A model generated the notes under the pieces. The model ran no database searches, was not told the DNA's origin, and saw only the letters and a list, made by a program, of their open reading frames with translations. A program made the position numbers and the translations under genes. DNA of 64,000 nucleotides from Exiguobacterium acetylicum. GTDB lineage: Bacteria; Bacillota; Bacilli; Exiguobacteriales; Exiguobacteriaceae. Shown here piece by piece: positions 15,670 through 43,061 of the stretch (its first letter is position 1; every line of letters starts with the position of its first letter). The DNA is taken from contig NZ_CP081878.1 of assembly GCF_022170825.1 (NCBI RefSeq), positions 2,754,001-2,818,000 on the forward strand. The letters are read 5' to 3'.

Positions 15670-15868
15670 GGCTTGATAATTCTCCTTTATTTTTCTAATT
15701 CACTGGCTATTTTTCATCAACTAGAAAATAGTATAACAAATAAATGGGAAATGGTTGATTTTTTTTTAAGAAATTCCATATGTTTTTTTATAAGTTTGCG
15801 TATAATGAAAAGTGGATTGTTATTATTTTCATTCATTTCCCTATCCATACACAGGAGGAATCGTTTTT
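15670..15868. promoter_or_regulatory. Divergent promoter region for the polysaccharide locus and a membrane protein gene
   Basis: A 199-nt AT-rich gap between divergent genes. On the minus strand a TATACT -10 lies at 15735-15730, but the best -35 at 17 nt (TCAACC) is weak, so an activator may be needed. On the plus strand a perfect TATAAT lies at 15801-15806, 62 nt before the ATG of the rightward gene, also without a clear -35. The two promoters are about 70 nt apart, so shared regulation is possible. Confidence 0.5.
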
Positions 15869-17014
15869 ATGCATCGTTCACTACAAGTACTCCAGTACTA
15901 TACATCTCATTCACAAGAAGACATTTCTCGCTTGCATCAGCGAATTCAATCAAGTCTTTCTTCAACTGAATCGTTGACAGATACGATGATCCGATTGACA
16001 GGTAGTGCTCCTCTTGTCCCATTTGAGGAAGATACCGTCACTGCAGCGGAATGGAATGCTTTTCTGCAAGGAAAACATCACGAGGTGCTCGCTGACTTTT
16101 TAGCTTTGCTCGTCTCTCGCCCCATCCTTGAAGAAGATGGTCCCGTAATCGCTGAAACAGAAGAACCACTGCCGACTCTGTCACGCAGTTATCGTGAACC
16201 GTCAGCTCGACGAAAACGTGATGATTCGAATATTTCTCATACTAAGAAGAGAATTCCTTGGGGATGGCTCGTGTTACTTCTTCTTTGTTTCTTACTTGGC
16301 GCTACTGGTACATACGTGTACTCTAATTATTTCGTCGCATCGAAGTCAACTCCTGAATCGACTGTCGAACAGCCTGTCACTGTCAATAAATCCGAGACAA
16401 AACAAAAGAAAAAAGAAAAAGCAACTCCAACAGAAGAGGCGACTTCGCTATACATTAATCAACGAAACAGCAATATTTATACAGATGAAAGCATGACGAC
16501 CGTCTTGTATGAAGCAGATTTTGGCGATCAGTATCCGATCGTGAAGAAATTAGACGGTAACATTCAAGTAAAAGTGACAGATCAATTATCTGGTTATGTT
16601 AAAACAGCTGAGACGACAACGAAGTTAACGGGTGATCCGATTACAGACGAAGCATTAGTATCATGGGTAACGAATAATTTAAATACTCAATTCGCCGAAG
16701 GATCAATCACGGACCTGATGGGAAAATCGAGTGAAGACCTCACGGCTTCTTTTGGTCCACCGAACCGGACATACCAGGACGATGTACATTCTTATCTTTT
16801 CTACGCTACACATTTTTTCATTCTTGATCAAAATCGGGTCGTCGCGATTGATTGGACAGACACATCGATTACGAATGATCAGTTAGCTACTCTCGCTCCC
16901 CTACAACTCGAAACAGATACAACCGGACTTGTCACAAGCAATTCCTATCGCCTACAGCGATTCGCAAAGGATGGTACGGTCAGCCGTGTCCGTCTGGCAG
17001 AACAATCTTTCTAA
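15869..17014 (+). CDS. Single-pass membrane protein with YjgB/CAP-associated-like extracellular domain, unknown function
   Basis: 381 residues from ATG 15869, preceded by AGGAGG at 10 nt; longer in-frame starts lack a ribosome site. A cytoplasmic part of about 120 residues is followed by one membrane helix (about 127-147) and a Ser/Thr/Lys/Glu-rich linker. The extracellular part has an SH3-like stretch (SLYINQRNSNIYTDE) and a segment GKSSEDLTASFGPPNRTY. That last pattern resembles DUF4309/CAP-associated domains, but I do not recognise the whole protein. It is divergent from the polysaccharide operon and ends at a bidirectional terminator, so it could sense or assist envelope polymer synthesis. 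Confidence 0.75.
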   Translation: MHRSLQVLQYYTSHSQEDISRLHQRIQSSLSSTESLTDTMIRLTGSAPLVPFEEDTVTAAEWNAFLQGKHHEVLADFLALLVSRPILEEDGPVIAETEEPLPTLSRSYREPSARRKRDDSNISHTKKRIPWGWLVLLLLCFLLGATGTYVYSNYFVASKSTPESTVEQPVTVNKSETKQKKKEKATPTEEATSLYINQRNSNIYTDESMTTVLYEADFGDQYPIVKKLDGNIQVKVTDQLSGYVKTAETTTKLTGDPITDEALVSWVTNNLNTQFAEGSITDLMGKSSEDLTASFGPPNRTYQDDVHSYLFYATHFFILDQNRVVAIDWTDTSITNDQLATLAPLQLETDTTGLVTSNSYRLQRFAKDGTVSRVRLAEQSF

Positions 17015-17056: not shown

Positions 17057-17983
17057 TTACTCGAGGTCAAGTGAATAACGAAGTGCCGTTTGTGTCTCTT
17101 TAAGAGAATCATCTGTCGGGTGCCAGTAGTAGATTCCGTCTCCTTCTTTACCACCTGCGCCTTCAAGCTTTAGATTCTTTTGATTACGGAAAGCATCCAT
17201 GTAATCAAATGCAAGTGTACGCATCGGTTTGAACGAAACGTTTGTTTGTGCATTTTTACCGACGACATCCATGATGGCATTGAAGTTACTAACTGATACA
17301 TCAGATGACAGTTTGTTAGCAACTTGAGCGATGACTTCCCGCTGACGCATTTGACGACCGAAGTCACCACGTGGATCTTCGTAACGCATCCGTGTGAATT
17401 TTAAAGCTGAATCACCATCAAGATTAATCTTACCAACTGGGAAGTGCGTCCCACCTACTTTAAAATCAAGATCGTTATTAACGGTTACCCCACCGACTGC
17501 ATCAACCAGTGAAGTGAATCCTTGCATATTGATTTCCGCGTAGTAGTTAATCGGAATATTGAGGAATTTTTCGACTGTCTTGATTGCCATTTCCGGTCCC
17601 CCGAATGAATAGGCATGGTTGATTTTATCGTTCGTTCCGTGACCGACGATATCGACCTTCGTGTCACGAGGAATACTAATCAAACGACTTTCGTTTCGCG
17701 TCGGATTCAACGTCATGATCATGATCGAGTCACTACGTCCTCGTTCTCCTGGTCGCTGATCGACACCTAACAGTAAGACGGATACCGGTTTTTGCTCGTC
17801 GACGATTTTATCCCCTGTATTTTTGACTGGAGATTGGATTTTCTTCACGGTCTGGTCGACTTGATAATATGTATAACCAATGAACCCGCCAATACCGACA
17901 ACAAGAACAAGTGCGATTAACAGCATAATCTTTAATGGGGTCCAGCGTTTTTTCACCTTACGTTTTTTCTTTACTCGTTCCAA
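17057..17983 (-). CDS. LytR-CpsA-Psr family glycopolymer ligase
   Basis: 308 residues: a basic N-terminus, one membrane helix (about 18-42) and an extracellular LCP domain. Diagnostic segments are LLLGVDQRPGERGRSDSIMI (Asp and Arg of the pyrophosphate site), LISIPRDTKVDI, KINHAYSFGG, and RMRYEDPRGDFGRQMRQREVI. These enzymes attach teichoic acids or capsule to peptidoglycan from undecaprenyl carriers. Being next to the capsule locus suggests it attaches that polymer, although it has its own promoter. Confidence 0.93.
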   Translation of the reverse strand: MERVKKKRKVKKRWTPLKIMLLIALVLVVGIGGFIGYTYYQVDQTVKKIQSPVKNTGDKIVDEQKPVSVLLLGVDQRPGERGRSDSIMIMTLNPTRNESRLISIPRDTKVDIVGHGTNDKINHAYSFGGPEMAIKTVEKFLNIPINYYAEINMQGFTSLVDAVGGVTVNNDLDFKVGGTHFPVGKINLDGDSALKFTRMRYEDPRGDFGRQMRQREVIAQVANKLSSDVSVSNFNAIMDVVGKNAQTNVSFKPMRTLAFDYMDAFRNQKNLKLEGAGGKEGDGIYYWHPTDDSLKETQTALRYSLDLE

Positions 17984-18098: not shown

Positions 18099-18129
18099 AA
18101 AAGAGCTCATCGTCTAGATAAGCTCTTTT
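18099..18129 (-). terminator. Terminator of the subtilase/BLIP-like operon
   Basis: A 9-bp stem (AAAAGAGCT / AGCTCTTTT) is followed by T residues on the minus strand, directly after the last paralogue gene (stop 18135). Confidence 0.75.
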
Positions 18130-18134
18130 ATCAA

Positions 18135-18821
18135 TTAAAGAGATGTTTGACTAGCTACTTTATAGGTTTTTTTCTTGAAATCATAGTCCATGATGACATA
18201 TTTCCGTTGACTCGTTGACGTCGGGAAAACATACCATTTTGTATATCCTTTAATACCTAATCCTAAATCAAGTTCTTGTTTCGTTTGAACGGGTGTCCAA
18301 TCAACAGTCGTCAAACTCGTCCATTCCCCTAATCCTTTTCCAGACAAAATACTATCCAATTGCTTTTCTGTCATGCCGTTTTTAATTTTCTTCCCCTTCA
18401 TCAGCTTCATTTTACTCTCCCTGAACCCTGTAGCCGAATCAAAACGTAACAGACTGACCGTTTTGCTTGTCAGACGATAGATAGAACTTTTCTTCTTCGT
18501 CATGAACATCAAGCCTGTCGTATCCATATAGGTTTTCTCATTGACAAATGTATAGAATGTCGCCTTCTGCCCATTCGTAGTACTTGTAGAATCTGCTTTT
18601 TTCTTTAAAACCGTCGAGCCGTTCTTTTTCGTCAGCTGCTTCTTATAGTCTTTTCCATAGATGACCTTTGCTGCTTGTTCAATCGTCATCCCAGCTTTTA
18701 ACGCTGTATAACGATCTGTTGCTTTCGTTTCGTCTTTTGTCGCAGCAGACGCTACGCCTCCGAATAGAGTCGTTCCTGCGATTACTGTTGCTAAGGCAAC
18801 TTTTGTGAATGTCATTTTCAT
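18135..18821 (-). CDS. Secreted BLIP/BamE-like two-repeat protein, paralogue 1 of 4
   Basis: 228 residues. A signal peptide (about 1-27, ending VASA-A) precedes two repeats with the BLIP/SmpA-type motif: LKAGMTIEQAAKVIYGK (about 41-57) and KNGMTEKQLDSILSGKGLG (about 148-165). Between them lies MFMTKKKSSIYRLTSK, shared with the three paralogues upstream. The fold suggests protein binding, as in beta-lactamase-inhibitor protein or BamE. No catalytic motif is seen. Its place at the end of an operon headed by a secreted subtilase suggests a role as protease ligand, inhibitor or assembly factor, which is an inference. Confidence 0.8.
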   Translation of the reverse strand: MKMTFTKVALATVIAGTTLFGGVASAATKDETKATDRYTALKAGMTIEQAAKVIYGKDYKKQLTKKNGSTVLKKKADSTSTTNGQKATFYTFVNEKTYMDTTGLMFMTKKKSSIYRLTSKTVSLLRFDSATGFRESKMKLMKGKKIKNGMTEKQLDSILSGKGLGEWTSLTTVDWTPVQTKQELDLGLGIKGYTKWYVFPTSTSQRKYVIMDYDFKKKTYKVASQTSL

Positions 18822-18836
18822 GTTCCTATCCCCTTT

Positions 18837-19526
18837 TTAGAATGTCTCGTGATTTTCAATAACGTAGGCTTTCTTTTTCGTGTCATAACTCATCTCAACG
18901 TAAACACGTGATTTCGTCGATTTTTGGAAGACATACAATTTTCCTTTAAACGCTTCAATCTCATAGTCTTTGATTTCTTTCGCACTGAAGACGCTTCGTG
19001 CATCTTCCTCAAGCAATCCAGCCCATTCCCCAAGACCAGACTCCGAGAGCACACCATCGAGTTGTTTCTCCGTCATTCCCCTCTTGATTTTAGCGCCCGT
19101 GTTTAACTTCCGTGTACTCTCTCGGTATTCGGAATATGTATTCCGTCCCATTTCGACTTGTTTCGAAATAAGACGATACACGGAATCGTTCTTTTTCGTC
19201 ATGAAACCGAGCGACATCAAGGTCGGAGGAATCTTTGCTTTCCGATCATAGATTTCGTAATAAATTTCCTTGCGCTTATCTTCAACGTCCTTAAACTCTT
19301 CTTTCGTCTTCAATACTTGTGAACCGCTTTTTGTCGTTAAATGTTTTTTGTAGTCTTTGCCGTATAAGACTTTTGCGACTTGCTCCATCGTCATACCTGC
19401 TTTTAGTGCCGTATATTGATTTGTAGCTACTGTCTCAACCTTCGTCGCTGCCGAAGCTGTTCCACTAAAAAGTGTTGATCCCGCGATGATTGTCGCCACT
19501 GTGATTTTCATGAATGTCGTATTCAT
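18837..19526 (-). CDS. Secreted BLIP/BamE-like two-repeat protein, paralogue 2 of 4
   Basis: 229 residues with a signal peptide (TASA-A). The repeats are LKAGMTMEQVAKVLYGK and KRGMTEKQLDGVLSESGLG. It is closest to paralogue 1 in the first repeat (YGKDYKK in both), but its second half is more diverged, with SEYRESTRKL and a DARSVFSAKE segment. Gaps of 15 nt separate it from both neighbours, so the genes are co-transcribed. The middle region (KEEFKDVEDKRKE) is charged and differs between paralogues, as expected if each has its own binding partner. Confidence 0.8.
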   Translation of the reverse strand: MNTTFMKITVATIIAGSTLFSGTASAATKVETVATNQYTALKAGMTMEQVAKVLYGKDYKKHLTTKSGSQVLKTKEEFKDVEDKRKEIYYEIYDRKAKIPPTLMSLGFMTKKNDSVYRLISKQVEMGRNTYSEYRESTRKLNTGAKIKRGMTEKQLDGVLSESGLGEWAGLLEEDARSVFSAKEIKDYEIEAFKGKLYVFQKSTKSRVYVEMSYDTKKKAYVIENHETF

Positions 19527-19541
19527 ACTCTACTCTCCTTT

Positions 19542-20228
19542 TTAATACTGACTATGATCTTCGACACGATACGCTTTCTTTTTCATGTCATAGATGAAAA
19601 AGATGTATTGCCATTTGTTTGTTGCAGTCGGAAAAACGTATGATTTCGTATGAATGATCGTTGCTTTTCCTGCTTTGACTTCTTTTTTTCGAAGGACGGA
19701 TGTCGTATCGACGTGACCGAGTGTTCCGAATGTTCCGAGCCCTTTTCCCGTCAGTACTCGATCGACTTGTTGTTCCGTCATTCCGTTTTTGATCTTCGCG
19801 CCCTTGATCAGTTTGCGATCACTCGTCCGGAATCCGGCTGCGGTGTCACGCTTGAACTCCATTTGTTTCATCGTCAGCCGGTACTTCGTTCCACCTGTCT
19901 CCGTCATGAACATCAGGACACCGATTGCTGACGGGAATTCAACTTTTCGATTCACGAGATCATAGAGAAGGACGTTCCGATCCCATTCCTCCATCTTGAT
20001 TTCTGTGCTCAATCGTAAGACTTGTGAACCATTTTTCATCTTCAACTGCTTCTTATAAGTCTTTCCATAGAGGACTTTTGCGACTTGTTCAACCGTCATC
20101 CCCGGTTTTAAAGCACGATACTGTTTTGTGGCGATCGTCTCGGCTTTTGTTGCTGCCGAGACCGCACCACTTCCGAGCAAGCTAATTGCCATCAAACAGA
20201 CAATGCTCACCTTGATCCATTTCTGCAT
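19542..20228 (-). CDS. Secreted BLIP/BamE-like two-repeat protein, paralogue 3 of 4
   Basis: 228 residues from ATG 20228; a GTG at 20237 in frame is an alternative, and neither has a strong ribosome site. Signal peptide to about residue 26 (VSA-A). The repeats are LKPGMTVEQVAKVLYGK and KNGMTEQQVDRVLTGKGLG, with MFMTETGGTKYRLTMKQ between. Same layout as its neighbours; function unknown. Confidence 0.78.
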   Translation of the reverse strand: MQKWIKVSIVCLMAISLLGSGAVSAATKAETIATKQYRALKPGMTVEQVAKVLYGKTYKKQLKMKNGSQVLRLSTEIKMEEWDRNVLLYDLVNRKVEFPSAIGVLMFMTETGGTKYRLTMKQMEFKRDTAAGFRTSDRKLIKGAKIKNGMTEQQVDRVLTGKGLGTFGTLGHVDTTSVLRKKEVKAGKATIIHTKSYVFPTATNKWQYIFFIYDMKKKAYRVEDHSQY

Positions 20229-20291
20229 CCGTTCCACTCACTTTCCATTCCCGCTTGCTTTAGTTTTTCATTGTTCACTATAGGCACTTCA

Positions 20292-21008
20292 TTAAAATTC
20301 CGGCGCCGTATCGTTCGGTCCTACTGTACGGATATTATCTACGACAAACTTTTTTCGTTCATGACTGTAGGCGAAATCGATTTCTTTCCACTTATTTTTT
20401 TGTGTAGTCGGAAATACATAGGTCTTCATCCGATACAATTCTTGAAAATCTAGACGAACTTCTTCTTTCGAATAACCCGACGTCGTATTCATATTGGCAA
20501 CAGCCGTCCAGTGACCTAATCCTTTACCTGAGAGCATCGCATCAATCTGTTTTTCCGTCATCCCATTTTCTGGTTTCGCACCTTTTTTAAGCTGACGTGT
20601 ACTTTCTCGATACCCCGTTTTTGACTTCCGTTCGATGAAAACGGCTTTGATGACCAATCGATAGATGTTACTTCTTTTCTTTGTCATGAAATGCAGGGCA
20701 AGTTTTGGACCTTGCTTCACGGAGCGATCTTCCATCACTTGAATCAATTGCTTATGCCCTTCTTCGACTGTTTCGTCATTGATCGGTAAGCGTAAAATCG
20801 TCGGCTGTGCTTTACGATATCGAATGTGTTTTTTCGCTTCTTTTCCATAAAGTGTTGTGGCGACCTGCTCGATCGTCATCCCATGCTTTAAGTCCTTATA
20901 CAATTCTGTTAAGCGGGTTTCTTCTTTAGTTGCTGCAGATGCTTCATCTGGAACTAAAACGGTTATTGCAATAAGGACGATCACCATCACTTTTCCCAGT
21001 ACTTTCAT
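20292..21008 (-). CDS. Secreted BLIP/BamE-like two-repeat protein, paralogue 4 of 4
   Basis: 238 residues and the most diverged copy. The signal peptide ends EASA-A. The repeats are LKHGMTIEQVATTLYGKEAKK and ENGMTEKQIDAMLSGKGLG, with HFMTKKRSNIYRLVIK between. It begins only 16 nt after the subtilase stop codon, so subtilase and paralogues form one transcript. The 63-nt gap to the next paralogue is the largest in the operon and could hold a processing site; I see no hairpin there. Confidence 0.8.
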   Translation of the reverse strand: MKVLGKVMVIVLIAITVLVPDEASAATKEETRLTELYKDLKHGMTIEQVATTLYGKEAKKHIRYRKAQPTILRLPINDETVEEGHKQLIQVMEDRSVKQGPKLALHFMTKKRSNIYRLVIKAVFIERKSKTGYRESTRQLKKGAKPENGMTEKQIDAMLSGKGLGHWTAVANMNTTSGYSKEEVRLDFQELYRMKTYVFPTTQKNKWKEIDFAYSHERKKFVVDNIRTVGPNDTAPEF

Positions 21009-21024
21009 CGCTTGACCCCTCTCC

Positions 21025-22584
21025 TTATTTCACGAGCTGAACGGCACGCTCGGCATTCAAGCGACCGTATCCATACGTCGTGTCGTAACCTTTCTTTCCA
21101 AGATCCTTCGCCGACTTGCGAAGAATTGATTCAACGTCCGTCACCTTGATACTTGGCTTCAAGCTGTAGAGGACACTCGCGACCCCTGCGACATGCGGTG
21201 TCGCCATCGACGTGCCACTCCAGAAGATGGACTCGCCGTCTTGCAGATAACTCGCGATATCTTGTCCCGGCGCCACAAGATCAAGCCCTTGACCATAGTT
21301 TGAGAACGACGCTCGTTTATCGGATCGGTTCGTCGCCCCGACCGAGAAGGTATATTTTGAACGTGCCGGATAGGACAGTTTCGACGTCCCTTCGTTACCG
21401 GTTGCTACTGCGACGAAGATTCCTTTTTTGCGCGCTTCCGCTAAGGCATCTTCAATCGCCAGCGAGACACCACCACCGCCAAGACTCAAGTTGATAACTT
21501 TTGCTTTTTGTTTTACGGCGAACAGAATGCCTTTCGCAATGTTCGAGTTCGACGCATAGTTGTTGCGCGAGATGACTTTGATCGGAATGATGCTCGCCCG
21601 GTCGTTGATACCCGTCATCCCGTAGCCGTTGTTCGATGTTGCAGCAATCACACCCGCGACATGTGTGCCGTGTCCATGATCGTCATAGGCGAGCTGACGT
21701 TTATGAACAAAATCGTATCCGAGATCCATCCGGACGCGTCCGGCGAAATCCGCATACGTCGGATTGATGCCGGTATCGATGACCGCTACGCGAACGGTCG
21801 AACGTGACTTGTTGGCAATCCGTTTGACCATCGCTTGATAGCCGATATCGGCTCCTTTGACACCTCCGCGTTGTCCCGTGTTTTTTAACGCCCACTGGAC
21901 GGACTGAAACGGATCAGTGCTGAGTAACTTCATCGGTTGATCGAGTTCGACGTACCGAACTCCCTTCGTTTTTTCAAGTTGTCGTTTTGCTGACATGGCT
22001 TGGATGAAGCTGTTGTAGGAGAACTTTTCAAGACGTAACGTACTGTCGATTGTTTCGTGATGAGTGGCGCGTGACGTCTGTGATAAGGTACTCGCTTTCA
22101 TCGCCCCATTCAGACGAACGACTAGACTCGTCGCTTGTACGGCTGTCGTTGATTTTTTTGCGTATTCCCGGATTGGTTCAAGACGTTCGAGTTTATAGGG
22201 AATCGTAAATGCTTTATTCTTCGCTCCCGTCACTTCGATGTATTGTCGTCCACTCCAAGTCAGTGGGAAAAAGAGCGTCTCTTTGCTGTTCGCATACCGC
22301 GCATACGGATCTTTTTGTTTGTATTCCGTCTGCGACGTATAAACGGTCGCTTTTTTTGAAGCGTCAAAAGCAAACTTCAAGTGTGTTCCACCTGATAAGT
22401 AGGTCTTTGTATCAAAATAGAACAAGGCCTTACCGCTCGCATCAAACGTTCCTTTGATGTAGCCTTTCTTCGTTTTTGCTTCGATTGCCGGGACTTTTTT
22501 GGCCGTTGTCGCTGCTTCTGTCGTATCCCATGTATATGTACTAAATGCACTCACGAGGAGGGCACTGACGATGATCTTTTTCAT
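21025..22584 (-). CDS. Secreted S8 (subtilisin-like) serine protease, operon head
   Basis: 519 residues. The signal peptide (about 1-24) is followed by a beta-rich domain (about 35-135, KGYIKGTFDASGKALFYFD, similar to pre-peptidase domains). A pro-region (about 145-235) has a fervidolysin-like end (VRYVELDQP, then QWALKNTGQ). The catalytic domain has Asp270 (VAVIDTG), His305 (GHGTHVAG), Asn397 (oxyanion) and Ser459 (SGTSMATPH). All residues are intact. It is the first gene of the operon carrying the four BLIP-like paralogues. A TATAAT element lies about 35 nt upstream of the start, without a good -35. Confidence 0.92.
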   Translation of the reverse strand: MKKIIVSALLVSAFSTYTWDTTEAATTAKKVPAIEAKTKKGYIKGTFDASGKALFYFDTKTYLSGGTHLKFAFDASKKATVYTSQTEYKQKDPYARYANSKETLFFPLTWSGRQYIEVTGAKNKAFTIPYKLERLEPIREYAKKSTTAVQATSLVVRLNGAMKASTLSQTSRATHHETIDSTLRLEKFSYNSFIQAMSAKRQLEKTKGVRYVELDQPMKLLSTDPFQSVQWALKNTGQRGGVKGADIGYQAMVKRIANKSRSTVRVAVIDTGINPTYADFAGRVRMDLGYDFVHKRQLAYDDHGHGTHVAGVIAATSNNGYGMTGINDRASIIPIKVISRNNYASNSNIAKGILFAVKQKAKVINLSLGGGGVSLAIEDALAEARKKGIFVAVATGNEGTSKLSYPARSKYTFSVGATNRSDKRASFSNYGQGLDLVAPGQDIASYLQDGESIFWSGTSMATPHVAGVASVLYSLKPSIKVTDVESILRKSAKDLGKKGYDTTYGYGRLNAERAVQLVK

Positions 22585-22680: not shown

Positions 22681-22711
22681 AAAAAAGAAGCCCTGTTCGC
22701 ACAGGACTTCT
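22681..22711 (-). terminator. Terminator after the second subtilase gene
   Basis: The stem AGAAG-x-CCTGT / ACAGG-x-CTTCT with a 4-nt loop is followed by a T run on the minus strand. It separates the upstream subtilase (22720-24294) from the subtilase/BLIP operon, so the latter needs its own promoter. Confidence 0.8.
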
Positions 22712-22719
22712 TGACTGCA

Positions 22720-24294
22720 TTAAGGAATCAGTTTGACTGCGTTATCGGCGTTCAAACGGCCGGCACCGTAGCTTGTATCGTAGCCTTTTTTACCGAGATC
22801 CTTCGCTGATTTCTTGAGGATACTTTCCACACTACTTGCCTTTAAGGACGGCTTCAGACTGATCAAGAGACTGGCGACACCCGCGACGTGTGGCGTCGCC
22901 ATCGAGGTGCCGCTACCGTATAGCAACTCCCCATCTGCGAGATAACTTGGGATCGAGACACCGGGAGCAACGAGGTCTAGTCCCGTTCCGTAGTTCGAGA
23001 ACGACGCTTTTGTATCCTTTCTCCCTGTCGCACCGACCGATACGACATATTTCGAACGGGCCGGATACGCGATCGTTCCGCGTCCTTCGTTCCCGGAAGC
23101 GGCGACGATTAGGATGTTCTTCTTGACCGCCGCAGCTAATGCCGACTCGATCGATTTCGAAGAAGAACTGCCACCGAGACTCATGTTGATGACCCGGGCA
23201 CCTTGTTTCGTCGCGTGCTGAATCCCTTTGACAAGTCCCGATACTGAACCAGCCCCCGACTCATCGAGGACCTTGATCGGAATCAACGTCACCATCGGAT
23301 TGATACCAGTCATCCCGTACGTGTTATTCCCTCCCGCCGCAATGACACCAGCGACATGTGAACCGTGTCCGTTATCATCCCACGCCGTCTTATCGCCATT
23401 GATAAAATCATAGCCGAGATCCATCCGGACTTTGCCCGCGAAGTCGGCATATGTCGGATTAATGCCGGAGTCGAGGACCGCGACTTTCGTCGCAGACAGC
23501 TTCTTACCCTTGATGCGTTTTTGCATGGCGACGAAGCCGATGTCCGCTCCTTTAAGCCCTTTCTTTTGTCCCGTGTTCTGCAACGACCATTGATGTTTTT
23601 GATAGGCATCGACACCGAACGCTTGAATCGGTGCATCGAACTCTGCGAACGCGACAACTGATGAGCGTTCGAATTTTTGTTGCGCTGCTTCAGCTTCCGC
23701 ATAGGAAGCATAGACGAGTCGCTCGATTCGGAGCTCAGACGCGACCACTTCGACTTTCGAAGCACCAAAGGATTGTGCCCGCATCGCACCGGGACGCGTC
23801 TGCACGAGTAGTGCTGGTTTGACTGCTTTGACAGCAGCTGTCATCGATTCCTCGATCGGTTCGTAACGTGAGATATAGGCAGGAATAGAATAACGATCGC
23901 CTGGGTAACCTTCGAGGACTAAGTATTGTCGTCCGCTCCAACTGAGTGGGAAGTAGAGCGTATCACCTGTGACTTGGTAATAGCGGTTGTAGACGCGACC
24001 TGCTTCCGCGTCAGCTTTACTGGCGAACATCGTTCCGTACGTGTCGTAGTCGAGCTCGAATTCGAAGTGTGTTCCTTTTGCCACGAAATTCTTCGCGTCA
24101 AAATACCAGACCGCCAATCCATCCGAATCAAATCGTCCTGTCAAAGCACTACCGGATTGTTTGGAGAAGACCGGAACTTCCTTTGCTTTCATTAATGTCG
24201 CGGGACGAATCTTCTCCTGCTTTTCAAACGCATTGACTGGTATCGTACTACAAATCAAACCGAGCGCTAAGCTCCCTGTTATCCATTTTCGCAT
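22720..24294 (-). CDS. Secreted S8 (subtilisin-like) serine protease, second copy
   Basis: 524 residues from the second of two tandem ATGs, which has AAGGAGG at 7 nt (the first, at 24297, has only 4 nt). It has the same layout as the neighbouring subtilase: signal peptide, beta-rich N-domain with FPLSWSGRQYLVLEG (FPLTWSGRQYIEVTG in the neighbour), pro-region and catalytic domain. Numbered from the first ATG, the active site is Asp276 (KVAVLDSG), His311 (HGSHVAG), Asn403 and Ser465 (SGTSMATPH). The pair arose by duplication. This copy is monocistronic, bounded by terminators on both sides. A TATAAT lies about 45 nt upstream. Confidence 0.92.
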   Translation of the reverse strand: MRKWITGSLALGLICSTIPVNAFEKQEKIRPATLMKAKEVPVFSKQSGSALTGRFDSDGLAVWYFDAKNFVAKGTHFEFELDYDTYGTMFASKADAEAGRVYNRYYQVTGDTLYFPLSWSGRQYLVLEGYPGDRYSIPAYISRYEPIEESMTAAVKAVKPALLVQTRPGAMRAQSFGASKVEVVASELRIERLVYASYAEAEAAQQKFERSSVVAFAEFDAPIQAFGVDAYQKHQWSLQNTGQKKGLKGADIGFVAMQKRIKGKKLSATKVAVLDSGINPTYADFAGKVRMDLGYDFINGDKTAWDDNGHGSHVAGVIAAGGNNTYGMTGINPMVTLIPIKVLDESGAGSVSGLVKGIQHATKQGARVINMSLGGSSSSKSIESALAAAVKKNILIVAASGNEGRGTIAYPARSKYVVSVGATGRKDTKASFSNYGTGLDLVAPGVSIPSYLADGELLYGSGTSMATPHVAGVASLLISLKPSLKASSVESILKKSAKDLGKKGYDTSYGAGRLNADNAVKLIP

Positions 24295-24377
24295 CATCGT
24301 TCCTCCTTCTAGGTCTTTCTTACCAATACCCAGATTATATGGTATTATGTGGAATTTAATGAATTATTGACTTAAAT

Positions 24378-24419: not shown

Positions 24420-27400
24420 TTAGTTCTTATCAAATAGAACTACTTTTTCAAAACCACCAGTCAATTCAGTATTATCATATGACTGAAGATCTTTATTGAC
24501 CGTAATGACGTTCGAAATATCTTTCAACATCCCTTCTGGGAGTTTGATTTTTACGATATCAAGACCATCTTTTGGTTCATCATTCGAGTCATCGAGTGAG
24601 ATGCTCGTACCCACCGGAAGATTTTTTCCATTCAACGTATATTGTGCAGTGTTCGTCGCATCATACATTCCTGTATACTGAACACCTTCCGTGAATTGGA
24701 TCTTGATAACGTCCTTGTTTTCTTTGACTTTAACTTTAACGTTATCAATTTTGAACGGTGTTGCCACTGGAACAACTGGTGTTTTTGTGACTTTAAAGTC
24801 ATGAGTCGCCGTAGCAACTGTATTACCGACATCGTCAGAAAGTGACTTGACGACAACTTTCCAAGCTTCGCCGTATCCGTTATTATCGACAAGACTTTGA
24901 AGGTTGTCATTCGCTTTGACACGGAAGTTCATATCTGAGCTATCCGTATAACCAACGACAGATCCATCAATTGTAACTGTTTTTCCATCTTTGTCTTTAC
25001 CGATAAACTCAACTGTCGTTTTAGGTGGAAGTACCGTACCCTCAGCACCAATGAGTGGTGTATCAGCTTCATCCATGCCACGCAACTTCACTGGTTCATT
25101 CATCATGACGGTAAAGTCATTTGTTAAGAGGTATCGATCAATTGTCGTAATTTCCGCACTCTTCAGATCTGGCGAATTAAGTGGTGAACCTGAATAATTA
25201 AGATCAAGTGTCAACTTATCATTCTTCTCACCGTTTGCCGTTGCTTTGACAGAGTCTTTCGCCAACGTAATTTTGAACTTATCGTTATAGTAGTTTTCTT
25301 TCGTGTTGACTGTATCGTAGATTTCAGTCCAGTCCTTATTGAGTTCGAGGAGGACTTCGCCCGTCTCATCATCATAATATGTGACGTCAGCATACTGGCT
25401 GAAGTCCTCATATGACTTTGTTTTTGAGTTGTAACGCTCAAGTTTCAACTTATTCGAAGCAAGCAGTCCTTTAACTTCATCGAGATCGAGACCTTTCAAC
25501 TTTTTGCTGAACATGATACGGAATTGTTCTGGTGACTCAACAACGACTCCTGCAGTCGGTTTGACTGTATCAGCATCGACTGTGAAATCGAGGTTTTGAG
25601 TCGTTCCGATATTTGCATCATCCGAAAGTGCAGCGAAGTCCATAGCGTTCCAAATCTGGAGTGAGTGCTTACCAGGTGTGAAGTATCCTTTTTTCGGTCC
25701 AGGATAAGCTTCTTCCGGCTCAGCTCCCATCATCATTTTTTCGTCATTCAGAGTAATGATGACTGTATCGCGACGATCGACACCTGTTTCGTTATCAAAT
25801 CCAAGGTATTTTACTTTGAAGTATTCCCCGCCATATTGACCATCGATTTTAAACATTGCACTATCAATGGCTTCTGAGAATTTCACTTCTAGCTGATTCA
25901 GACCGACCGGTTTGACCGAAGTGACTTCTGGCTGACGCGCGTCCGTCAACTTGAAGCTCGCCGACGAGTTCATTTCTGTATTTGTACTGCTGATGATCGT
26001 AGCATTTACTGTGACCATCGCGTTATCGCGCAATGGTGTCTTTTTATCAAGAATCAATTCAAATGCTTTTGGATTTGACGGGATAGACTTGATACCGATA
26101 ACACGTTTAGCGTCCTCGAATTGCTCAACGATAATGTTTCCATTCGCAAGATAATCACTCTCTTTGACTGTCGGTAACTTTTTATTAAGACCGAACGATT
26201 TTAAGAGAAGATCACGAGAAACTGCTTTATCAAGGAAAATCGTCACTCGATCCGCTTGGTTCGATTCAGCTGCGAGGACATTGACTAATTCAACCGGTTT
26301 AGGGGTAACCATTACTGTGCTGAATTTGACTTTCGCTTGCCCATCGATTTTTCCGATTAAGTCCTTGTAGTCACCATTGACCGTCTCAATGATTTGCGCA
26401 TCAATTGTCGCTTCAATATCTGTGTTACTGAACTCAGAAGTCAAAAGAACAGTTGCTTTACCATCTTGAATCGTGACGCGTTCTTTCGCGAGTGAACCGA
26501 ACGATGTCGACAATTTCAAGACGATATCGTCGGCTTTCGTATCGACTTCACCCGTCGCTTTGTTTTTCAACTGGAATGTAACTTCCGTGTTATCTGCACC
26601 GTTTGCAAGGATCGAAGAAGCTTTCGGTGTCACTTCGAGCATCCAGATATTTTCGACACTTTGTGTCATGAAACTCAACGCTCCAAGATTTTTAGAGACG
26701 CCTCCGACCATGATTCCTTTTACATCAACTGAATAGTCCATGCCATAGTCTAAACCACTGACTTCAAGAACCGCTGACTTCTTGTCTGGGCTGAGTTTTG
26801 CTGACTTAACCGTCGCTCCTGAAATTTTGAAGTTATCTGCCTTTACAGAATCAACGGCACGTGAGAACGATACTTCGACTTTCTCTTTACCGATTGCTTT
26901 TGCTGAAGTGAGGACGGTGTTAGCAATCGTAAAGTTCATTGGAGATGATTTTACATTTCCGATTTTCACGACATAGCTGTGTGTTCCTTCTGGAATACCA
27001 TTCTTCATAGCCGTGAATTTACCCTTAGATAATTTTCCCTTAACCATGATTGGTTTTACCGACATGTCTTTACCTGGGTAAATCAAGAGTTCAGCCATTG
27101 CCCCTACTGCCGGGTACATGACGTCTGCTTTGACTGAAAGCATCTGATCATCGACGCTTCCCATGACATTTGAAATATTCGCTGATTTGACTTCGTAGTT
27201 GATATAACCTGTCACGACAGAGTTAGCACCTTTATAAGAATAAGCCAATTTATATTTGCCTGATTTTTTGGTAGACGGTGTCTTAAGATTAAATTTACTG
27301 ATCGGACGCTTAACGATGATGCCTGATTTGTACTGGATGCTAATCGTGCTTGGCAATTGAACTTTTCCACCAACAGCGACCGGCTCGAGGACTGGTTCAA

Positions 27401-27764
27401 TGACATCAACTGGATAGTTTTGAAGTTCGACTTTAAGAACAGCTTTCTTCGTCGTACCCGCTACCTTACCGTAAAGAACTTGGTATTTGTTGATGTATTT
27501 CTTTTCGAATTTGACTGAACCGCTCCATTTGACTGAGCGCATTTCGTACTTGCCGTTTGAAAGTTTGACTTTGACTTTCGACGGAAGCGTCAATTTCTTG
27601 ACTGCATATTTCGAACCACCTGCGTGTTTCATCAAGATTGGAGAGATGTATTTAACCGAGACCTTTGATGCTGCATCAGCAGCAACCGGTGCTACGACAG
27701 ACGCTGTGACTGCAAGCGCAGCTGCAGCAGCGTACAATTTGTTCGTTTTCTTTGAATAACCCAT
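24420..27764 (-). CDS. Large secreted Ig-like surface protein, putative S-layer protein
   Basis: 1114 residues. The signal peptide (about 1-31, ending DAA-S) is followed by two Big_4-like modules (LPSKVKVKLSNGKYEMRSVKW and LPSTISIQYKSGIIVKRPI). Then comes a long series of beta-sandwich domains with S-layer-type Ig folds (VEVSFSRAVDSVKADNFKI, LEVKFSEAIDSAMF, FRIMFSKKLKGLDLDE). No SLH domain, LPXTG motif or C-terminal membrane helix is present, so attachment probably uses the N-terminal modules, which is an inference. A near-perfect ribosome site (AGGAGG), strong terminator and long leader suit an abundant surface-layer protein. Alternative: a secreted adhesin. Confidence 0.78.
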   Translation of the reverse strand: MGYSKKTNKLYAAAAALAVTASVVAPVAADAASKVSVKYISPILMKHAGGSKYAVKKLTLPSKVKVKLSNGKYEMRSVKWSGSVKFEKKYINKYQVLYGKVAGTTKKAVLKVELQNYPVDVIEPVLEPVAVGGKVQLPSTISIQYKSGIIVKRPISKFNLKTPSTKKSGKYKLAYSYKGANSVVTGYINYEVKSANISNVMGSVDDQMLSVKADVMYPAVGAMAELLIYPGKDMSVKPIMVKGKLSKGKFTAMKNGIPEGTHSYVVKIGNVKSSPMNFTIANTVLTSAKAIGKEKVEVSFSRAVDSVKADNFKISGATVKSAKLSPDKKSAVLEVSGLDYGMDYSVDVKGIMVGGVSKNLGALSFMTQSVENIWMLEVTPKASSILANGADNTEVTFQLKNKATGEVDTKADDIVLKLSTSFGSLAKERVTIQDGKATVLLTSEFSNTDIEATIDAQIIETVNGDYKDLIGKIDGQAKVKFSTVMVTPKPVELVNVLAAESNQADRVTIFLDKAVSRDLLLKSFGLNKKLPTVKESDYLANGNIIVEQFEDAKRVIGIKSIPSNPKAFELILDKKTPLRDNAMVTVNATIISSTNTEMNSSASFKLTDARQPEVTSVKPVGLNQLEVKFSEAIDSAMFKIDGQYGGEYFKVKYLGFDNETGVDRRDTVIITLNDEKMMMGAEPEEAYPGPKKGYFTPGKHSLQIWNAMDFAALSDDANIGTTQNLDFTVDADTVKPTAGVVVESPEQFRIMFSKKLKGLDLDEVKGLLASNKLKLERYNSKTKSYEDFSQYADVTYYDDETGEVLLELNKDWTEIYDTVNTKENYYNDKFKITLAKDSVKATANGEKNDKLTLDLNYSGSPLNSPDLKSAEITTIDRYLLTNDFTVMMNEPVKLRGMDEADTPLIGAEGTVLPPKTTVEFIGKDKDGKTVTIDGSVVGYTDSSDMNFRVKANDNLQSLVDNNGYGEAWKVVVKSLSDDVGNTVATATHDFKVTKTPVVPVATPFKIDNVKVKVKENKDVIKIQFTEGVQYTGMYDATNTAQYTLNGKNLPVGTSISLDDSNDEPKDGLDIVKIKLPEGMLKDISNVITVNKDLQSYDNTELTGGFEKVVLFDKN

Positions 27765-34871: not shown

Positions 34872-35807
34872 ATGAAACGTTGGTTATTACCGGCGAGCAT
34901 CCTCTTGATGGTCGCATCGGTCGGAACCTTGCTGTTCCTCTTGTTCGGTCAAACCAAACCAGATACATCGAACATCACACAAGGTGATCCAAAAACAGAA
35001 TCCGCGGCCTCTTCCGAGACGAAGGAAGAAGATCCGCTCAAGCCGTCTGAAATCTTCAAGAAAGAGTTCAAGGACCTCTCGGCAACAGAGGTCGAGCTTC
35101 CGAAACAACTCGTCATCCCGAAGCACGACATTAAGACGAAAGTCGAACAAGTCGGACTCGATAAAGATGGTGCGATGGCAACTCCTAAAAACGAACAACA
35201 AGCCGGCTGGTATAAGTTCGGTCCGCGCCCCGGTGACGTCGGCAATGCCGTCATCGACGGTCACACCGATACGAAGACCGGTCCTGCGATCTTCTATAAA
35301 CTGCATGAGCTGAAGAAAGGTGATCCGGTCGAAATCACAGATGCGTCTGGACGAAAGCTCGTCTTCCGTGTCAAAGAAATCGTCCAGTACGATCACTTAA
35401 AAGCACCACTGAAGAAAATATTCGGTCCTGCAGATACACGGAACTTAAACTTGATCACGTGTATTGGAACGTATGATGAGAATCAAGGGACGTATGATGA
35501 TCGTCTCGTCGTCTTCACGGAACTTGATGAGAAAGCATCAGATCCCGTCAAGACACCACCAAAACCCGCGACGAATATCCGCGTCAGTGGCGGTTTCATC
35601 AACTGGTATGCGTCACCTGATGAAGACGTCGTCAAATACAATGTCTACCAAGAAAAAGACGGAAAACGTAAAAAACTCGGTACGACAGAATCGATCGAGC
35701 GTAAAGCGTTCCCGCTTCCTGAAGATGCAACCGGTCGTTTTGTCATCACAGCTGTCAGTAAAGCCGGAATCGAATCAGAAGACGCTTTCAGCGCTGTTCA
35801 GAAATAA
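34872..35807 (+). CDS. Class F sortase with C-terminal fibronectin-like domain
   Basis: 311 residues. An N-terminal membrane helix (about 7-25) is followed by an acidic Ser/Thr linker and a sortase domain with IDGHTDT (His131), LITCIGTY (Cys197) and YDDRLVVF (Arg211). The segment PAIFYKLHELKKGD is typical of class F enzymes. After the domain, an extra module (about 232-311, INWYASPDEDVVKYNVYQE) looks like a fibronectin type III domain, unusual for sortases. It cleaves an LPXTG-like motif and links the protein to peptidoglycan. The neighbour's MPNTG is the obvious substrate. Confidence 0.9.
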   Translation: MKRWLLPASILLMVASVGTLLFLLFGQTKPDTSNITQGDPKTESAASSETKEEDPLKPSEIFKKEFKDLSATEVELPKQLVIPKHDIKTKVEQVGLDKDGAMATPKNEQQAGWYKFGPRPGDVGNAVIDGHTDTKTGPAIFYKLHELKKGDPVEITDASGRKLVFRVKEIVQYDHLKAPLKKIFGPADTRNLNLITCIGTYDENQGTYDDRLVVFTELDEKASDPVKTPPKPATNIRVSGGFINWYASPDEDVVKYNVYQEKDGKRKKLGTTESIERKAFPLPEDATGRFVITAVSKAGIESEDAFSAVQK

Positions 35808-36453: not shown

Positions 36454-37515
36454 CTAAGCCTCGATCCGTTCCTTCATCCATCCCCGATCGAGTCCATGTA
36501 CACCGGGACGCCCATGTGTCGCAAGGTACTGGCAATACTGGACCGCGAGATACTCTGCCTGAAACTCGACATACCGCGTTCCCGGTAGACTATTGACCTC
36601 ATAGAGATAGATTTTTCCATCCGCACCGATCCCGACATCGATCCCGAGTGCATCGAGCGGGTAATCATAAAACGATTCGAAATAGACGGGGAACCGTCGC
36701 GCAAAGTCAACGATCCGTCGCGAAATCGCTTCATGTTGATCCGGATAGTTCTGCTTCATGAAGATGTCCATCCGCGTCGTCGAAAACGCTCCATGACTGA
36801 GATGGCTGACCGATTCTTGGTGATTGTTGCTGACGAACGGAAAATATTTAACGAGTTTCCATTGCCCGTTTGCTCCCTTCGCGACATGGATTCGCATACA
36901 ATACGAGTGCCCATGGATCGTTTGCGAGGCGATGAACGGCTGGACGATCATCGGATTCCGTTTGGTCTCTTCTTCGATGCGGGTGATCAATTCCCCTGTC
37001 GAACAGACAGTTGACTCCAATAGATGGCTGAATCGATACTCGTCGCCTTCTGGTTCAATCGTATAAATCCGTTGTCCTTGTTTACCATTCGCCGGCTTGA
37101 AAACGACTTTTCCGTATTTCTCCATCAGCGGCAAAATCGTCTTTCCTTTCTTTACCCGGTGCATTGGAATCAAGACATCCTGAAACGTGCCTTCTTGTGC
37201 CAATTGACGTAGGACGACGTTTTTATTCCCAATCCGGTGCGTCGTAAACGGAATCTCGGTTGCGAGACGATTAAACAATTCCTTATCCGCATCACTGAGT
37301 GGCAAATGATTATAGATGACGTCCGGAAACTCATACATACTTTGATGCCACGCATCTTCGTCAAAGAAGAGTCCCCGGATCGTCCGATTTTCGAAATCGA
37401 CATCACGCGGTCGGAAAAAGAAGATGTCGACCCCCATCGAGGCACCGATGACGCAGGCAATCTTATCGCGAAACTGGGGCGTCTCATTTAAGCGTAAAAT
37501 TCCGATTCGTGTCAT
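36454..37515 (-). CDS. YheC/YheD-type ATP-grasp protein
   Basis: 353 residues. The N-terminal region is IGILRLNETPQFRDKI. The ATP-grasp core has FKPANGKQGQRIYTI (nucleotide-binding Lys and glycine loop), VQPFI, RIHVAKGANGQWKLV and DALGIDVGIGADGKIYLYEVNSLPGT (metal-binding Asp, Glu, Asn). Family members in Bacillus are called spore-coat associated, yet no sporulation genes are seen here. ATP-grasp enzymes activate a carboxylate and join it to an amine or similar group. It overlaps the sortase D stop by ATGA, a sign of translational coupling. Substrate unknown; peptide, glycan or the acidic adhesin are possibilities. Confidence 0.82.
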   Translation of the reverse strand: MTRIGILRLNETPQFRDKIACVIGASMGVDIFFFRPRDVDFENRTIRGLFFDEDAWHQSMYEFPDVIYNHLPLSDADKELFNRLATEIPFTTHRIGNKNVVLRQLAQEGTFQDVLIPMHRVKKGKTILPLMEKYGKVVFKPANGKQGQRIYTIEPEGDEYRFSHLLESTVCSTGELITRIEEETKRNPMIVQPFIASQTIHGHSYCMRIHVAKGANGQWKLVKYFPFVSNNHQESVSHLSHGAFSTTRMDIFMKQNYPDQHEAISRRIVDFARRFPVYFESFYDYPLDALGIDVGIGADGKIYLYEVNSLPGTRYVEFQAEYLAVQYCQYLATHGRPGVHGLDRGWMKERIEA

Positions 37516-38129
37516 GACGCATCCCCCTCGACCGGTTCAAAGTAGATCAAATAACGTTCCGTGCTGTTCGTGACGTTATAAAACGGATAACAGGTCGAGA
37601 CGACGAGTGACTCTTGCTTCGTTGACTCGAGAACCCGTGTGTCTTTATAATCGACGATTTCACTCGACTGCATGACGTAGCGATAGGAGCCGTTCGCGAG
37701 ATAGAGGACGACTTCGTCTCCCTTCTTTAGCTTACTGATTTTCGAGAACGTCGTATCGTTGTGCCCCGCGAGAAAAATCCGATCACCTTGCCCCGGAAAT
37801 GCTGTCTCCGGATGATGACCGATTCCTTTTGCGAGTGTCGCATCATCGACGCCTTCAAGTACCGGCAACTCCATTTCAAGTGACGGAACTTCTAAATAAC
37901 CGACCGTCTCACCCGTTTGAAAGAGGACATCCTCGGTCTTCTCCTTCGACCGTTTACTCTTTGTTTCTGATTTTGCTGTGGTCGATGACGTTCCTTCTGC
38001 CTGGACGACATCTTTTGCTTTTGCCAGTTCCGTCGTCAAAGTCTGCTGAACCGTCAGTTTCTGATAGCCGACGTATCCGAGCAACAAAAGTCCAATAACT
38101 AGCAATCCCGTTGACAGGCGTCGCATCAT
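37512..38129 (-). CDS. Class D sortase
   Basis: 205 residues from ATG 38129, with AAGGAGG at 7 nt. N-terminal membrane helix (about 5-23), a Lys/Ser/Thr linker, then the sortase domain with GHHPETAFPGQGDRIFLAGHND (split here at the catalytic His123), STCYPF (Cys180) and TERYLIYF (Arg192). The GxxHHxxTxxPGxxG pattern marks class D. Class D enzymes of Bacillus use LPNTA/LPDTS-type signals, and the first protein of this operon ends in LPNTS. It overlaps the genes on both sides by 4 nt (ATGA). Confidence 0.9.
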   Translation of the reverse strand: MMRRLSTGLLVIGLLLLGYVGYQKLTVQQTLTTELAKAKDVVQAEGTSSTTAKSETKSKRSKEKTEDVLFQTGETVGYLEVPSLEMELPVLEGVDDATLAKGIGHHPETAFPGQGDRIFLAGHNDTTFSKISKLKKGDEVVLYLANGSYRYVMQSSEIVDYKDTRVLESTKQESLVVSTCYPFYNVTNSTERYLIYFEPVEGDAS

Positions 38130-42800: not shown

Positions 42801-43061
42801 GACATCCGTCAATAACTGAACTTCAGCTAAGCTGACACGATTCGGTCCTTGGACGAGCGAATTTCGAACCGAGTTCGCGAATTGACTTTGTTGCGTCTGA
42901 AACTTCTTTTCAGAATTCTCAGCTGCTTCAGTTTTCGTATAAGTGAATGAGATCGGAGAGAGGGCGAGAGAGGACGCTGCCAGCAGTTTCACTAGTCTTC
43001 GTGTGTGGTTTCTATGGTGTCGATTCATCTTCTTTCGAAAATCAGGTGCTTTTTTCTTCAT
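39834..43061 (-). CDS. LPNTS-anchored adhesin with a giant Asp-Ala dipeptide repeat
   Basis: 1075 residues. A basic N-terminus and signal peptide (about 1-46), then a globular adhesive domain (about 50-365) with repeated [19 protein letters not shown] and VTNAITNL-like helices and a beta end ([20 protein letters not shown]). An uninterrupted Asp-Ala repeat fills residues about 373-919. It is followed by an Asn/Asp/Gly stretch, a Pro-rich wall-spanning region, LPNTS (1042-1046), a membrane helix and RRRPQE. AAGGAG lies 7 nt before ATG. The architecture parallels Ser-Asp Sdr/Clf proteins of staphylococci, with Ala replacing Ser. Class D sortase downstream fits the LPNTS signal. Confidence 0.88.
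40305..41945 (-). repeat. 1641-nt hexanucleotide-type repeat encoding (Asp-Ala)n
   Basis: 547 codons of strictly alternating GAY and GCN. Third positions vary freely among all four Ala and both Asp codons, so pure tandem hexamers are short. Longer near-identical blocks recur, for instance about 41448-41530 and 41687-41765, and a related block near 40828-40920. All three frames on both strands are therefore open over much of the region, which creates long false reading frames. Confidence 0.95.

What the first reader, a model, noticed from the sequence alone, without database searches (positions are those of the whole stretch)
18135..22584. Secreted subtilase followed by four tandem BLIP/BamE-like secreted paralogues in one operon
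The subtilase stop is 16 nt before the first paralogue, and the four paralogues end at a single terminator. BLIP-type folds bind enzymes tightly; pairing a protease with four diverged binders suggests dedicated inhibitors, protease chaperones, or ligands that steer it to targets or shield the cell surface. Four copies with variable middle regions suggest diversification against several partners. I know of no described system with this composition.
Basis: partly seen in the sequence, partly recalled or inferred. Interest (0 to 1): 0.8.

Follow-up and report, generated by a model that had tools for sequence, protein, structure and literature searches.

The report
Subtilase operon with BLIP-fold binder array
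An Exiguobacterium genome carries, in what looks like one operon, a secreted protein-cutting enzyme and four secreted proteins folded like a known enzyme-binding protein; the arrangement is real and recurs in its genus, but what the four proteins bind is still unknown.

Summary
SubA (21025-22584, minus strand), an S8 subtilase, is followed after 16 nt by four signal-peptide-bearing paralogues P1-P4; terminator-like hairpins follow SubB and P4. The BLIP/BamE guess holds for the fold: a confident P3 model (pLDDT 94.9) has only BLIP or BLIP-like structures as its 16 best entries (Z 7.4-8.8), with BamE on single halves. The family was found only in the window's genus. All 14 genomes with a SubA orthologue have P directly behind it; 49 of 70 copies sit there, 1-6 per genome.

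The 'dedicated SubA inhibitor' reading is weaker: SubA has its own pro-subtilisin-type propeptide, and four unlike copies face one enzyme. Residues along the strands alternate between conserved and variable (p 0.0086), but assigning phases by hydrophobicity showed no difference, so a 'variable binding face' is only suggested. No positive selection. I favour client-specific secreted binders co-made with a surface protease; clients are unproven.

The parts
21025..22584 (-). SubA: secreted S8 subtilase, 519 aa: signal peptide, N-terminal part of mainly strands, pro-subtilisin-type propeptide (about residues 150-216), S8 catalytic domain with Asp/His/Ser motifs
   Evidence: Pfam PF00082 E 4.9e-56; motifs IDTGI269, HGTHV305, GTSMA457; propeptide plus catalytic domain matched to unprocessed pro-subtilisins, Z 20.7
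20292..21008 (-). P1: secreted BLIP-fold paralogue, 238 aa; orthologue only in G010, near relatives in G002 and G016
   Evidence: fold inferred from its 38% identity to the modelled P3
19542..20237 (-). P2: secreted BLIP-fold paralogue, 231 aa (GTG start; an in-frame ATG lies three codons in)
   Evidence: BamE PF04355 23.4 bits against cut-off 23.2, two stretches; clade of six genomes
18837..19526 (-). P3: secreted BLIP-fold paralogue, 229 aa; the copy modelled
   Evidence: AlphaFold2 pLDDT 94.9, pTM 0.89; best fold matches 3d4e, BLIP-I, BLIP, BLP
18135..18821 (-). P4: secreted BLIP-fold paralogue, 228 aa; last-position type, grouping with the single copies of G006, G009, G015 and G017 (support 88/95)
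18099..18129 (-). terminator-like hairpin after P4, 13 pairs and T run
22685..22712 (-). terminator-like hairpin between SubB and SubA, 12 pairs and T run
22720..24297 (-). SubB: second S8 subtilase, 525 aa, about 52% identical to SubA; looks like a separate unit; not followed by P
24420..27764 (-). SLP: 1114-aa secreted Ig-like surface protein (Big_4 over cut-off; Invasin_D3 and fn3 below cut-off), S-layer-like but not shown to be an S-layer protein
17057..17983 (-). LytR/CpsA-type protein (name by recall), the next labelled gene downstream of the P array
   Evidence: next labelled gene after P in 14 of 14 P loci, at 130-211 nt in 12 and about 1.5-1.6 kb in G002 and G012; not scanned against a library

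Best explanation
Shown: one transcription-unit-like array encodes an S8 subtilase with intact motifs and its own propeptide, and four signal-peptide-bearing proteins of the two-domain BLIP fold, in a surface-protein locus found only in Exiguobacterium so far. Inferred: the P proteins are exported with SubA, stay near the wall (basic, no lipobox, no sortase motif by eye) and bind proteins, probably through the open face of their beta-sheet as BLIP does. Since four unlike copies stand beside one SubA in a single genome, each P most likely has its own client (a surface protein, a wall enzyme or a foreign enzyme). Together they set what the co-made protease may reach: they shield some targets or present others. 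They are thus most likely client-specific modulators of surface proteolysis, not four plugs for one active site.
For: Order SubA-P in 14 of 14 genomes of the SubA clade (support 100/99), gap -4 to 22 nt (longest frames), behind none of 13 SubB genes. BLIP fold: the 16 best entries among 999 chains aligned are BLIP or BLIP-like, Z 7.4-8.8, next row 6.3. Internal duplication: halves align at the GMT helix, E 0.0011 for one comparison, probability only 20%. Strand residues alternate in variability more than chance (permutation p 0.0086); the more variable phase has mean entropy 2.53 bits against 1.74 in loops and 1.42 in helices. P1-P4 fall in separate clades, with lineage-specific gain and loss. 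A large Ig-like surface protein lies by P in 14 of 14 P loci, and two relatives of it beside P in the 3 genomes where P lacks SubA. Mature pI 9.35-10.0, no Cys in the window's four.
Against: No complex was predicted or measured; no client is known. The face argument is mixed: phases assigned by hydrophobicity had equal entropy (2.09 and 2.10); the phase was chosen by its own variability, so 2.53 is biased upward; two of eight strands show no clear difference; the between/within-clade ratio does not single it out (10.3 against 11.1-12.5), so it is not specially paralogue-specific; no coordinates could be read. Relaxed constraint would look alike. No positive selection. 21 of 70 copies are not behind SubA. 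Foldseek alone gave nothing under E 0.03.
Confidence: 0.3

Rival explanations
1. P1-P4 are dedicated inhibitors (or carriers) of SubA itself: they bind the mature enzyme after propeptide removal and hold it off until it reaches its place of work.
For: Strict coupling to SubA in 14 of 14 genomes; BLIP fold is an enzyme-inhibitor fold; BLIP-like PepSY domains are proposed peptidase inhibitors (PMC2954215, passages).
Against: SubA has a propeptide of the self-inhibiting kind. P distances do not follow SubA (rho 0.24 for last P, 0.22 for first P, against 0.76 for SubA and LCP), but P follows hardly any gene of the locus, and first and last P are not all orthologues, so this test says little. SubA is served by 1 P in G015 and G018 and by 5-6 in G001, G002, G011 and G016.
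Confidence: 0.22
2. P proteins are envelope-assembly or wall-maintenance factors in the manner of BamE/OmlA or TseB/CopD, and share the locus with SubA only because both serve the surface layer.
For: The Ig-like surface protein lies by P in 14 of 14 P loci and two relatives of it lie beside P in the 3 genomes where P lacks SubA. PMC10653890 (passages) places TseB and CopD, which act with penicillin-binding proteins, in the BLIP-like superfamily and notes envelope-integrity roles. BamE PF04355 is the commonest Pfam match, 7 of 29 members at E 0.1 or better, one window copy over cut-off.
Against: G005 has a relative of the surface protein and a SubA-like protease but no P. Does not explain why P is coupled to SubA in particular and follows none of 13 SubB genes.
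Confidence: 0.22
3. P proteins are secreted inhibitors of foreign enzymes (competitors' proteases, lysins or other hydrolases), a diversified defence set.
For: Lineage-specific gain and loss, broken copies in G002 and G010; alternating variable strand residues.
Against: No positive selection on average. No P match in PADLOC; P3 found nothing in phage records, the second-contig copy nothing in plasmid records, alignment A2 nothing in viral contigs. Fixed link to one host protease is not expected.
Confidence: 0.1
4. P proteins are substrates of SubA: precursors that the protease trims into their working form or recycles.
For: Coupling to SubA; lysine-rich sequences, 13-17% Lys.
Against: Model is confident almost throughout (186 of 203 residues at pLDDT 90 or more), with no evident linker to cut.
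Confidence: 0.06

Closest known systems
BLIP / BLIP-I / BLP of Streptomyces (Pfam PF07467)
   Same: Secreted (recalled); two tandem helix-and-sheet domains; whole-length fold match Z 7.4-8.7.
   Different: No Pfam BLIP match in the window's four at E 10 and in 2 of 29 relatives only weakly, best E 0.022; no tandem array or protease operon is known to me for BLIP; target not shown here.
3d4e, putative BLIP of Streptococcus mutans (unpublished structure, named in PMC2954215, passage)
   Same: Best fold match, Z 8.8, 148 aligned, in a Gram-positive.
   Different: 12% identity; function not known to me.
BamE / SmpA-OmlA (PF04355)
   Same: Each half of P resembles one BamE domain (Z 4.6 and 4.7); P2 reaches the Pfam cut-off.
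   Different: BamE is a single-domain outer-membrane lipoprotein of Gram-negatives (recalled); P has two domains, no lipobox and no outer membrane to serve.
PepSY-type propeptides and TseB/CopD/YpmB
   Same: BLIP-like superfamily; inhibitor or envelope roles proposed (PMC2954215 and PMC10653890, passages).
   Different: PepSY is not among the Pfam matches of P1-P4 or of the 29 relatives; P is a separate soluble protein, in variable number, beside an S8 and not an M4 protease.
Protease-partner operons: staphopain-staphostatin, SpeB-Spi, PrtP-PrtM (recalled, from no call)
   Same: Secreted protease gene beside a gene for a small partner.
   Different: Those partners are single, of other folds, and staphostatins stay in the cell; here 1-6 secreted BLIP-fold copies.

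Membership tests
Peptidase S8 (SubA, SubB) | S8 domain with Asp, His, Ser motifs | tested here: met
   PF00082 E 4.9e-56 and 2.7e-57; all three motifs in 29 of 29 SubA/SubB rows over 300 aa
Pro-subtilisin with I9-like propeptide (SubA) | propeptide fold ahead of the catalytic domain | tested here: met
   best matches are unprocessed pro-subtilisins over model residues 126-486, Z 20.7; model mean pLDDT is only 61, its propeptide part 77-94 by blocks of ten; Pfam I9 below cut-off, 14.5 against 21.2; pro-subtilisin E chain aligned from profile position 140
BLIP-like superfamily (fold) | two tandem helix plus antiparallel sheet domains | tested here: met
   for P3; halves weakly related by profile
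BLIP, PF07467 | match to the family profile | tested here: not met
   no match in P1-P4 at E 10; 2 of 29 relatives weakly, best E 0.022
BLIP, PF07467 | binds and inhibits class A beta-lactamase | not testable with these tools
   the genome has two PF13354 matches over cut-off, the nearer about 75 kb from the locus; they may be other enzymes of that fold; no binding test possible
BamE, PF04355 | match over curated cut-off | tested here: inconclusive
   P2 23.4 against 23.2 bits; P3 13.6; P1 and P4 none; 7 of 29 relatives at E 0.1 or better
BamE, PF04355 | lipoprotein of the outer membrane | tested here: not met
   no Cys in mature P1-P4; the genus is Gram-positive (named; Gram type by recall)
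Dedicated protease inhibitor of SubA | binds and inhibits the adjacent protease | not testable with these tools
   only single chains could be modelled

The most novel reading that the evidence does not exclude
The operon encodes a new kind of extracellular proteolysis module: one self-activating surface subtilase with a swappable set of secreted BLIP-fold adaptors or shields, each of which chooses a client, so that target range evolves by gain and loss of adaptor genes and not by change in the protease.
Probability: 0.15. Interest if true: 0.8.

Novelty: new variant of a known kind. Interest (0 to 1): 0.5.

Why it matters
For BLIP-like proteins other than BLIP, precise functions remained to be found (PMC2954215, passages) and their mode of action is called poorly understood (PMC10653890, passages). 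This locus ties an expanded set of such proteins to one protease in every genome examined that has that protease, so it gives a small system in which the long-suggested inhibitor or partner role can be tested directly. If the adaptor reading is right, it would be a natural set of protease-targeting or protease-shielding proteins built on one scaffold.

Tried and rejected
Chaperone (foldase) role for P: put low, since SubA has its own pro-subtilisin-type propeptide. Anti-phage or mobile-element reading: no P match in PADLOC (SubA and SubB match subtilase and IetS models there), none in phage records for P3, plasmid records for the second-contig copy or viral contigs for A2. Coupling of P number to the GH70 gene: ORFs of 892-894 aa stand at that place in 10 of 14 loci (two tested as GH70); they are absent in the window, G010, G013 and G015, with 4, 4 (one broken), 3 and 1 P; no relation seen. 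General S8 link of BamE-domain proteins in Bacilli: PF04355 matches in 5 of 151 genomes; their neighbours were not read. PDB sequence search with the P profile gave three matches, two ribosomal S8 proteins and one Legionella protein, best E 0.01. Foldseek on the P3 model gave nothing under E 0.03. Phase assignment by hydrophobicity showed no difference in variability (2.09 and 2.10 bits); the assignment was by variability itself. The SubA model is poor over much of the catalytic part and was used only for the propeptide. Literature: nine searches answered; I saw no paper on this operon in their listings, but not every matching paper was listed and the library holds only open-licence papers.

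Limits and rows left out: the class searches scored at most 7 candidates a genome and 5. One search used 18 of 21 P proteins (two pieces of a broken copy in L067 and one row of L073 alike to L072's were dropped). One search used 58 of 62 rows (four fragments dropped), with only 8 of the 18 solitary copies. One search took first and last P over 200 aa. Searches used 50 copies, 47 behind SubA and 3 single; 49 of 50 were assigned to clades (G002_3of7 was not). Two SubB rows were taken as the longest frames. Some dS values exceed 1 and are near saturation.

Full report
WHAT IS THERE. On the minus strand the window reads: SLP (24420-27764), SubB (22720-24297), SubA (21025-22584), P1 (20292-21008), P2 (19542-20237), P3 (18837-19526), P4 (18135-18821), then a LytR/CpsA-type gene (name by recall; 17057-17983). 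Gaps are 122, 135, 16, 54, 15, 15 and 151 nt in that order. Terminator-like hairpins stand after SubB and after P4, so SubA and P1-P4 look like one transcript and SubB like another; the scan as a whole finds no more such sites than shuffles do. The ribosome-binding-like sequence of P1 begins at the SubA stop.

THE PROTEASES. SubA and SubB are S8 subtilases with all three catalytic motifs, about 52% identical. SubA's model is weak as a whole (mean pLDDT 61) but its propeptide part scores 77-94, and the best structural matches are unprocessed pro-subtilisins aligned across propeptide and catalytic domain (Z 20.7, 273 aligned, 3.4 A). So the usual intramolecular chaperone and first inhibitor is probably already in cis. 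Among 299 genomes drawn from the class, eight outside the genus match at E 1e-75 or better, at 46-48% identity, mostly over the catalytic part, in open frames of 907-1241 codons. The 520-residue SubA/SubB build was seen only in this genus, though that search scored at most five candidates a genome.

THE PARALOGUES. P4, P2 and P1 share 50, 47 and 38% identity with P3. All have a signal-peptide-like start and no Cys in the mature part, and mature pI is 9.35-10.0. Pfam sees almost nothing: P2 passes the BamE cut-off by 0.2 bit, none of the four matches BLIP, and across 29 relatives 7 match BamE and 2 match BLIP weakly. The P3 model, made from 18 sequences without templates, is confident (pLDDT 94.9, pTM 0.89). 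Foldseek found no convincing match (best E 0.033), but the second aligner put BLIP-fold structures at all of the first 16 places, one row per entry: 3d4e from Streptococcus mutans (Z 8.8, 148 aligned, 4.2 A), BLIP-I (8.7), BLIP (up to 8.1), BLP (8.0); the next row is 6.3, and BamE matches single halves at 4.6 and 4.7. Z of 8-9 is near the level the tool calls middling, so the weight lies in the run of 16 BLIP-type entries over the whole length and the drop after them. Profile comparison of the two halves aligns the GMT helix of one with that of the other (E 0.0011 for one comparison, but probability only 20%). I take the BLIP-like fold as well supported and membership in the BLIP sequence family as not met.

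WHERE IT OCCURS. With a 29-row profile, full-length P genes are in 17 of 19 genomes of the window's genus and 0 of 19 of the sister genus; the only other match, in G007, is a 24-residue scrap. No genome of another genus matches among 398 drawn from the class (145 genera), and of 398 drawn from the phylum only the window's own does. The genus is named from seven relatives found in named records, all Exiguobacterium. I counted 70 copies by hand (broken copies included; two short scraps, in G002 and G007, left out): 49 lie directly behind SubA, 3 are single genes of G006, G009 and G017, and 18 are solitary copies elsewhere, one of them on the 184-kb second contig of the window's genome. In the 10 solitary stretches read (16-17 kb each) and the 3 single-gene stretches (about 20 kb each), no frame matched SubA or SubB. 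In G006, G009 and G017 the single P gene stands divergently beside two genes related to SLP, and the only protease of the SubA/SubB type lies about 24-36 kb away on the same contig.

COUPLING TO SubA. A tree of 31 subtilases separates a SubA clade of 14 genomes (support 100/99) from 13 SubB genes (99/98). All 14 SubA genes are followed by P, at -4 to 22 nt by longest frames; none of the 13 SubB genes is. The SubA-like gene of G005, outside the clade, has no P, and G007 has neither P (scrap apart) nor a SubA-like nor an SLP-like gene at the thresholds used. This is strong coupling. P number behind SubA runs from 1 (G015, G018) to 6 (G002, one broken). P1-P4 fall in separate clades; gain and loss look lineage-specific, and copies are broken in G002 (last) and G010 (the P3 orthologue).

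DOES P FOLLOW SubA? Pairwise distances over the 14 genomes correlate 0.76 for SubA with LCP but 0.24 and 0.22 for SubA with last and first P. P follows most genes of the locus poorly (last P 0.12-0.27 with all; first P 0.66 with ORF400 and 0.41 with SLP), since first and last copies are not all orthologues, so the test says little about SubA in particular. Mean distance over the 14 genomes is 0.231 for SubA, 0.387 for last P, 0.527 for first P, 0.146 for SLP and 0.082 for LCP; in the five closest genomes SubA is 94-96% identical to the window's. Orthologue dN/dS in 40 P pairs is 0.04-0.29; SubA averages 0.039, SLP 0.109, LCP 0.032, ORF400 0.098 (15 pairs each). So P genes are constrained, change faster than SubA, and show no average positive selection.

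WHERE P VARIES. Within strands, conserved and variable residues alternate more than chance (p 0.0086, residues shuffled within strands, 50 copies). The more variable phase has mean entropy 2.53 bits against 1.62 for the other phase, 1.42 for helices and 1.74 for loops, but it was chosen by its own variability, so only the permutation p is a fair test. Against this: when phases were assigned by mean hydrophobicity they did not differ (2.09 and 2.10 bits); two of eight strands show no clear difference; and the between-clade to within-clade ratio of the variable phase (10.3) is not above that of other parts (11.1-12.5). The conserved phase holds invariant Tyr, Leu and Phe, which suggests to me that it packs on the helices and the variable phase is the open face, the one by which BLIP grips beta-lactamase (recalled). 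This is a suggestion, not a result.

MECHANISM. Four copies stand beside one SubA in the same genome, three of them only 38-50% identical to P3, and SubA already has a propeptide. Four plugs for one active site are hard to square with that. I therefore favour client-specific binders co-made with SubA, which shield or present targets at the surface; I put this at 0.30, direct SubA inhibitors at 0.22, and envelope factors at 0.22. Shown: genes, order, signal-like starts, fold (as a model), conservation. Inferred: single transcript, export, place, binding face, clients, effect on proteolysis.

WHAT IS KNOWN. PMC2954215 (passages only) describes a BLIP-like superfamily (BLIP, PepSY, SmpA_OmlA, DUF2874, DUF3192) and proposes inhibitory partner binding; PepSY domains occur with M4 and M36 peptidases. 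PMC10653890 (passages) puts PepSY proteins CopD and TseB, partners of penicillin-binding proteins, in it. PMC3800074 (passages) reports a surface layer in Exiguobacterium oxidotolerans. PMC11299179 (passages) treats the GtfC (GH70) enzymes of Exiguobacterium; the passages say nothing of this locus. In the listings of nine searches I saw no description of this operon; the library holds open-licence papers only.

VERDICT. Real, conserved and so far seen in one genus; a new variant of a known kind (BLIP-like partner proteins, protease-partner operons). The partner is unknown, which limits the interest to 0.5.

Noticed in passing
39834-43061 (-): A 1075-aa protein with an unbroken Asp-Ala dipeptide run of 546 residues (from residue 373) before an LPxTG-like end (LPNTSEN...), with sortase-like genes nearby (34872-35807, 37512-38168; names by recall, not scanned).
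   Followed up: partly
between SubB and SLP in relatives, e.g. L049:10657-13335, L038:10843-13524: Relatives carry an 892-894 aa protein there, in the two tested cases GH70 (GtfC-like) with Big_2 domains; by size and place in 10 of 14 loci. The window lacks it.
   Followed up: partly
G000:C2:101394-102056 (L052:8388-9077): A fifth P paralogue lies alone on the 184-kb second contig of the window's genome, about 30% identical to P4; no match in the plasmid collection.
   Followed up: partly
L040:5164-13101, L042:4523-12460, L050:4938-13899: In G006, G009 and G017 a single P gene stands divergently beside two large SLP-related genes (aBig_2 repeats in the L040 pair, the only pair scanned), with no SubA/SubB-like gene in the stretch.
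   Followed up: partly
15812-17014 (+): A 400-aa membrane-anchored-looking protein whose C-terminal part by eye resembles a further BamE-like helix motif; a relative lies next to the locus in all 14 P loci and it has no Pfam match of note.
   Followed up: no
L067:9597-10285 (G010) and L037:4488-5173 (G002): P copies split into two overlapping frames in single genomes, signs of decay in the array.
   Followed up: no
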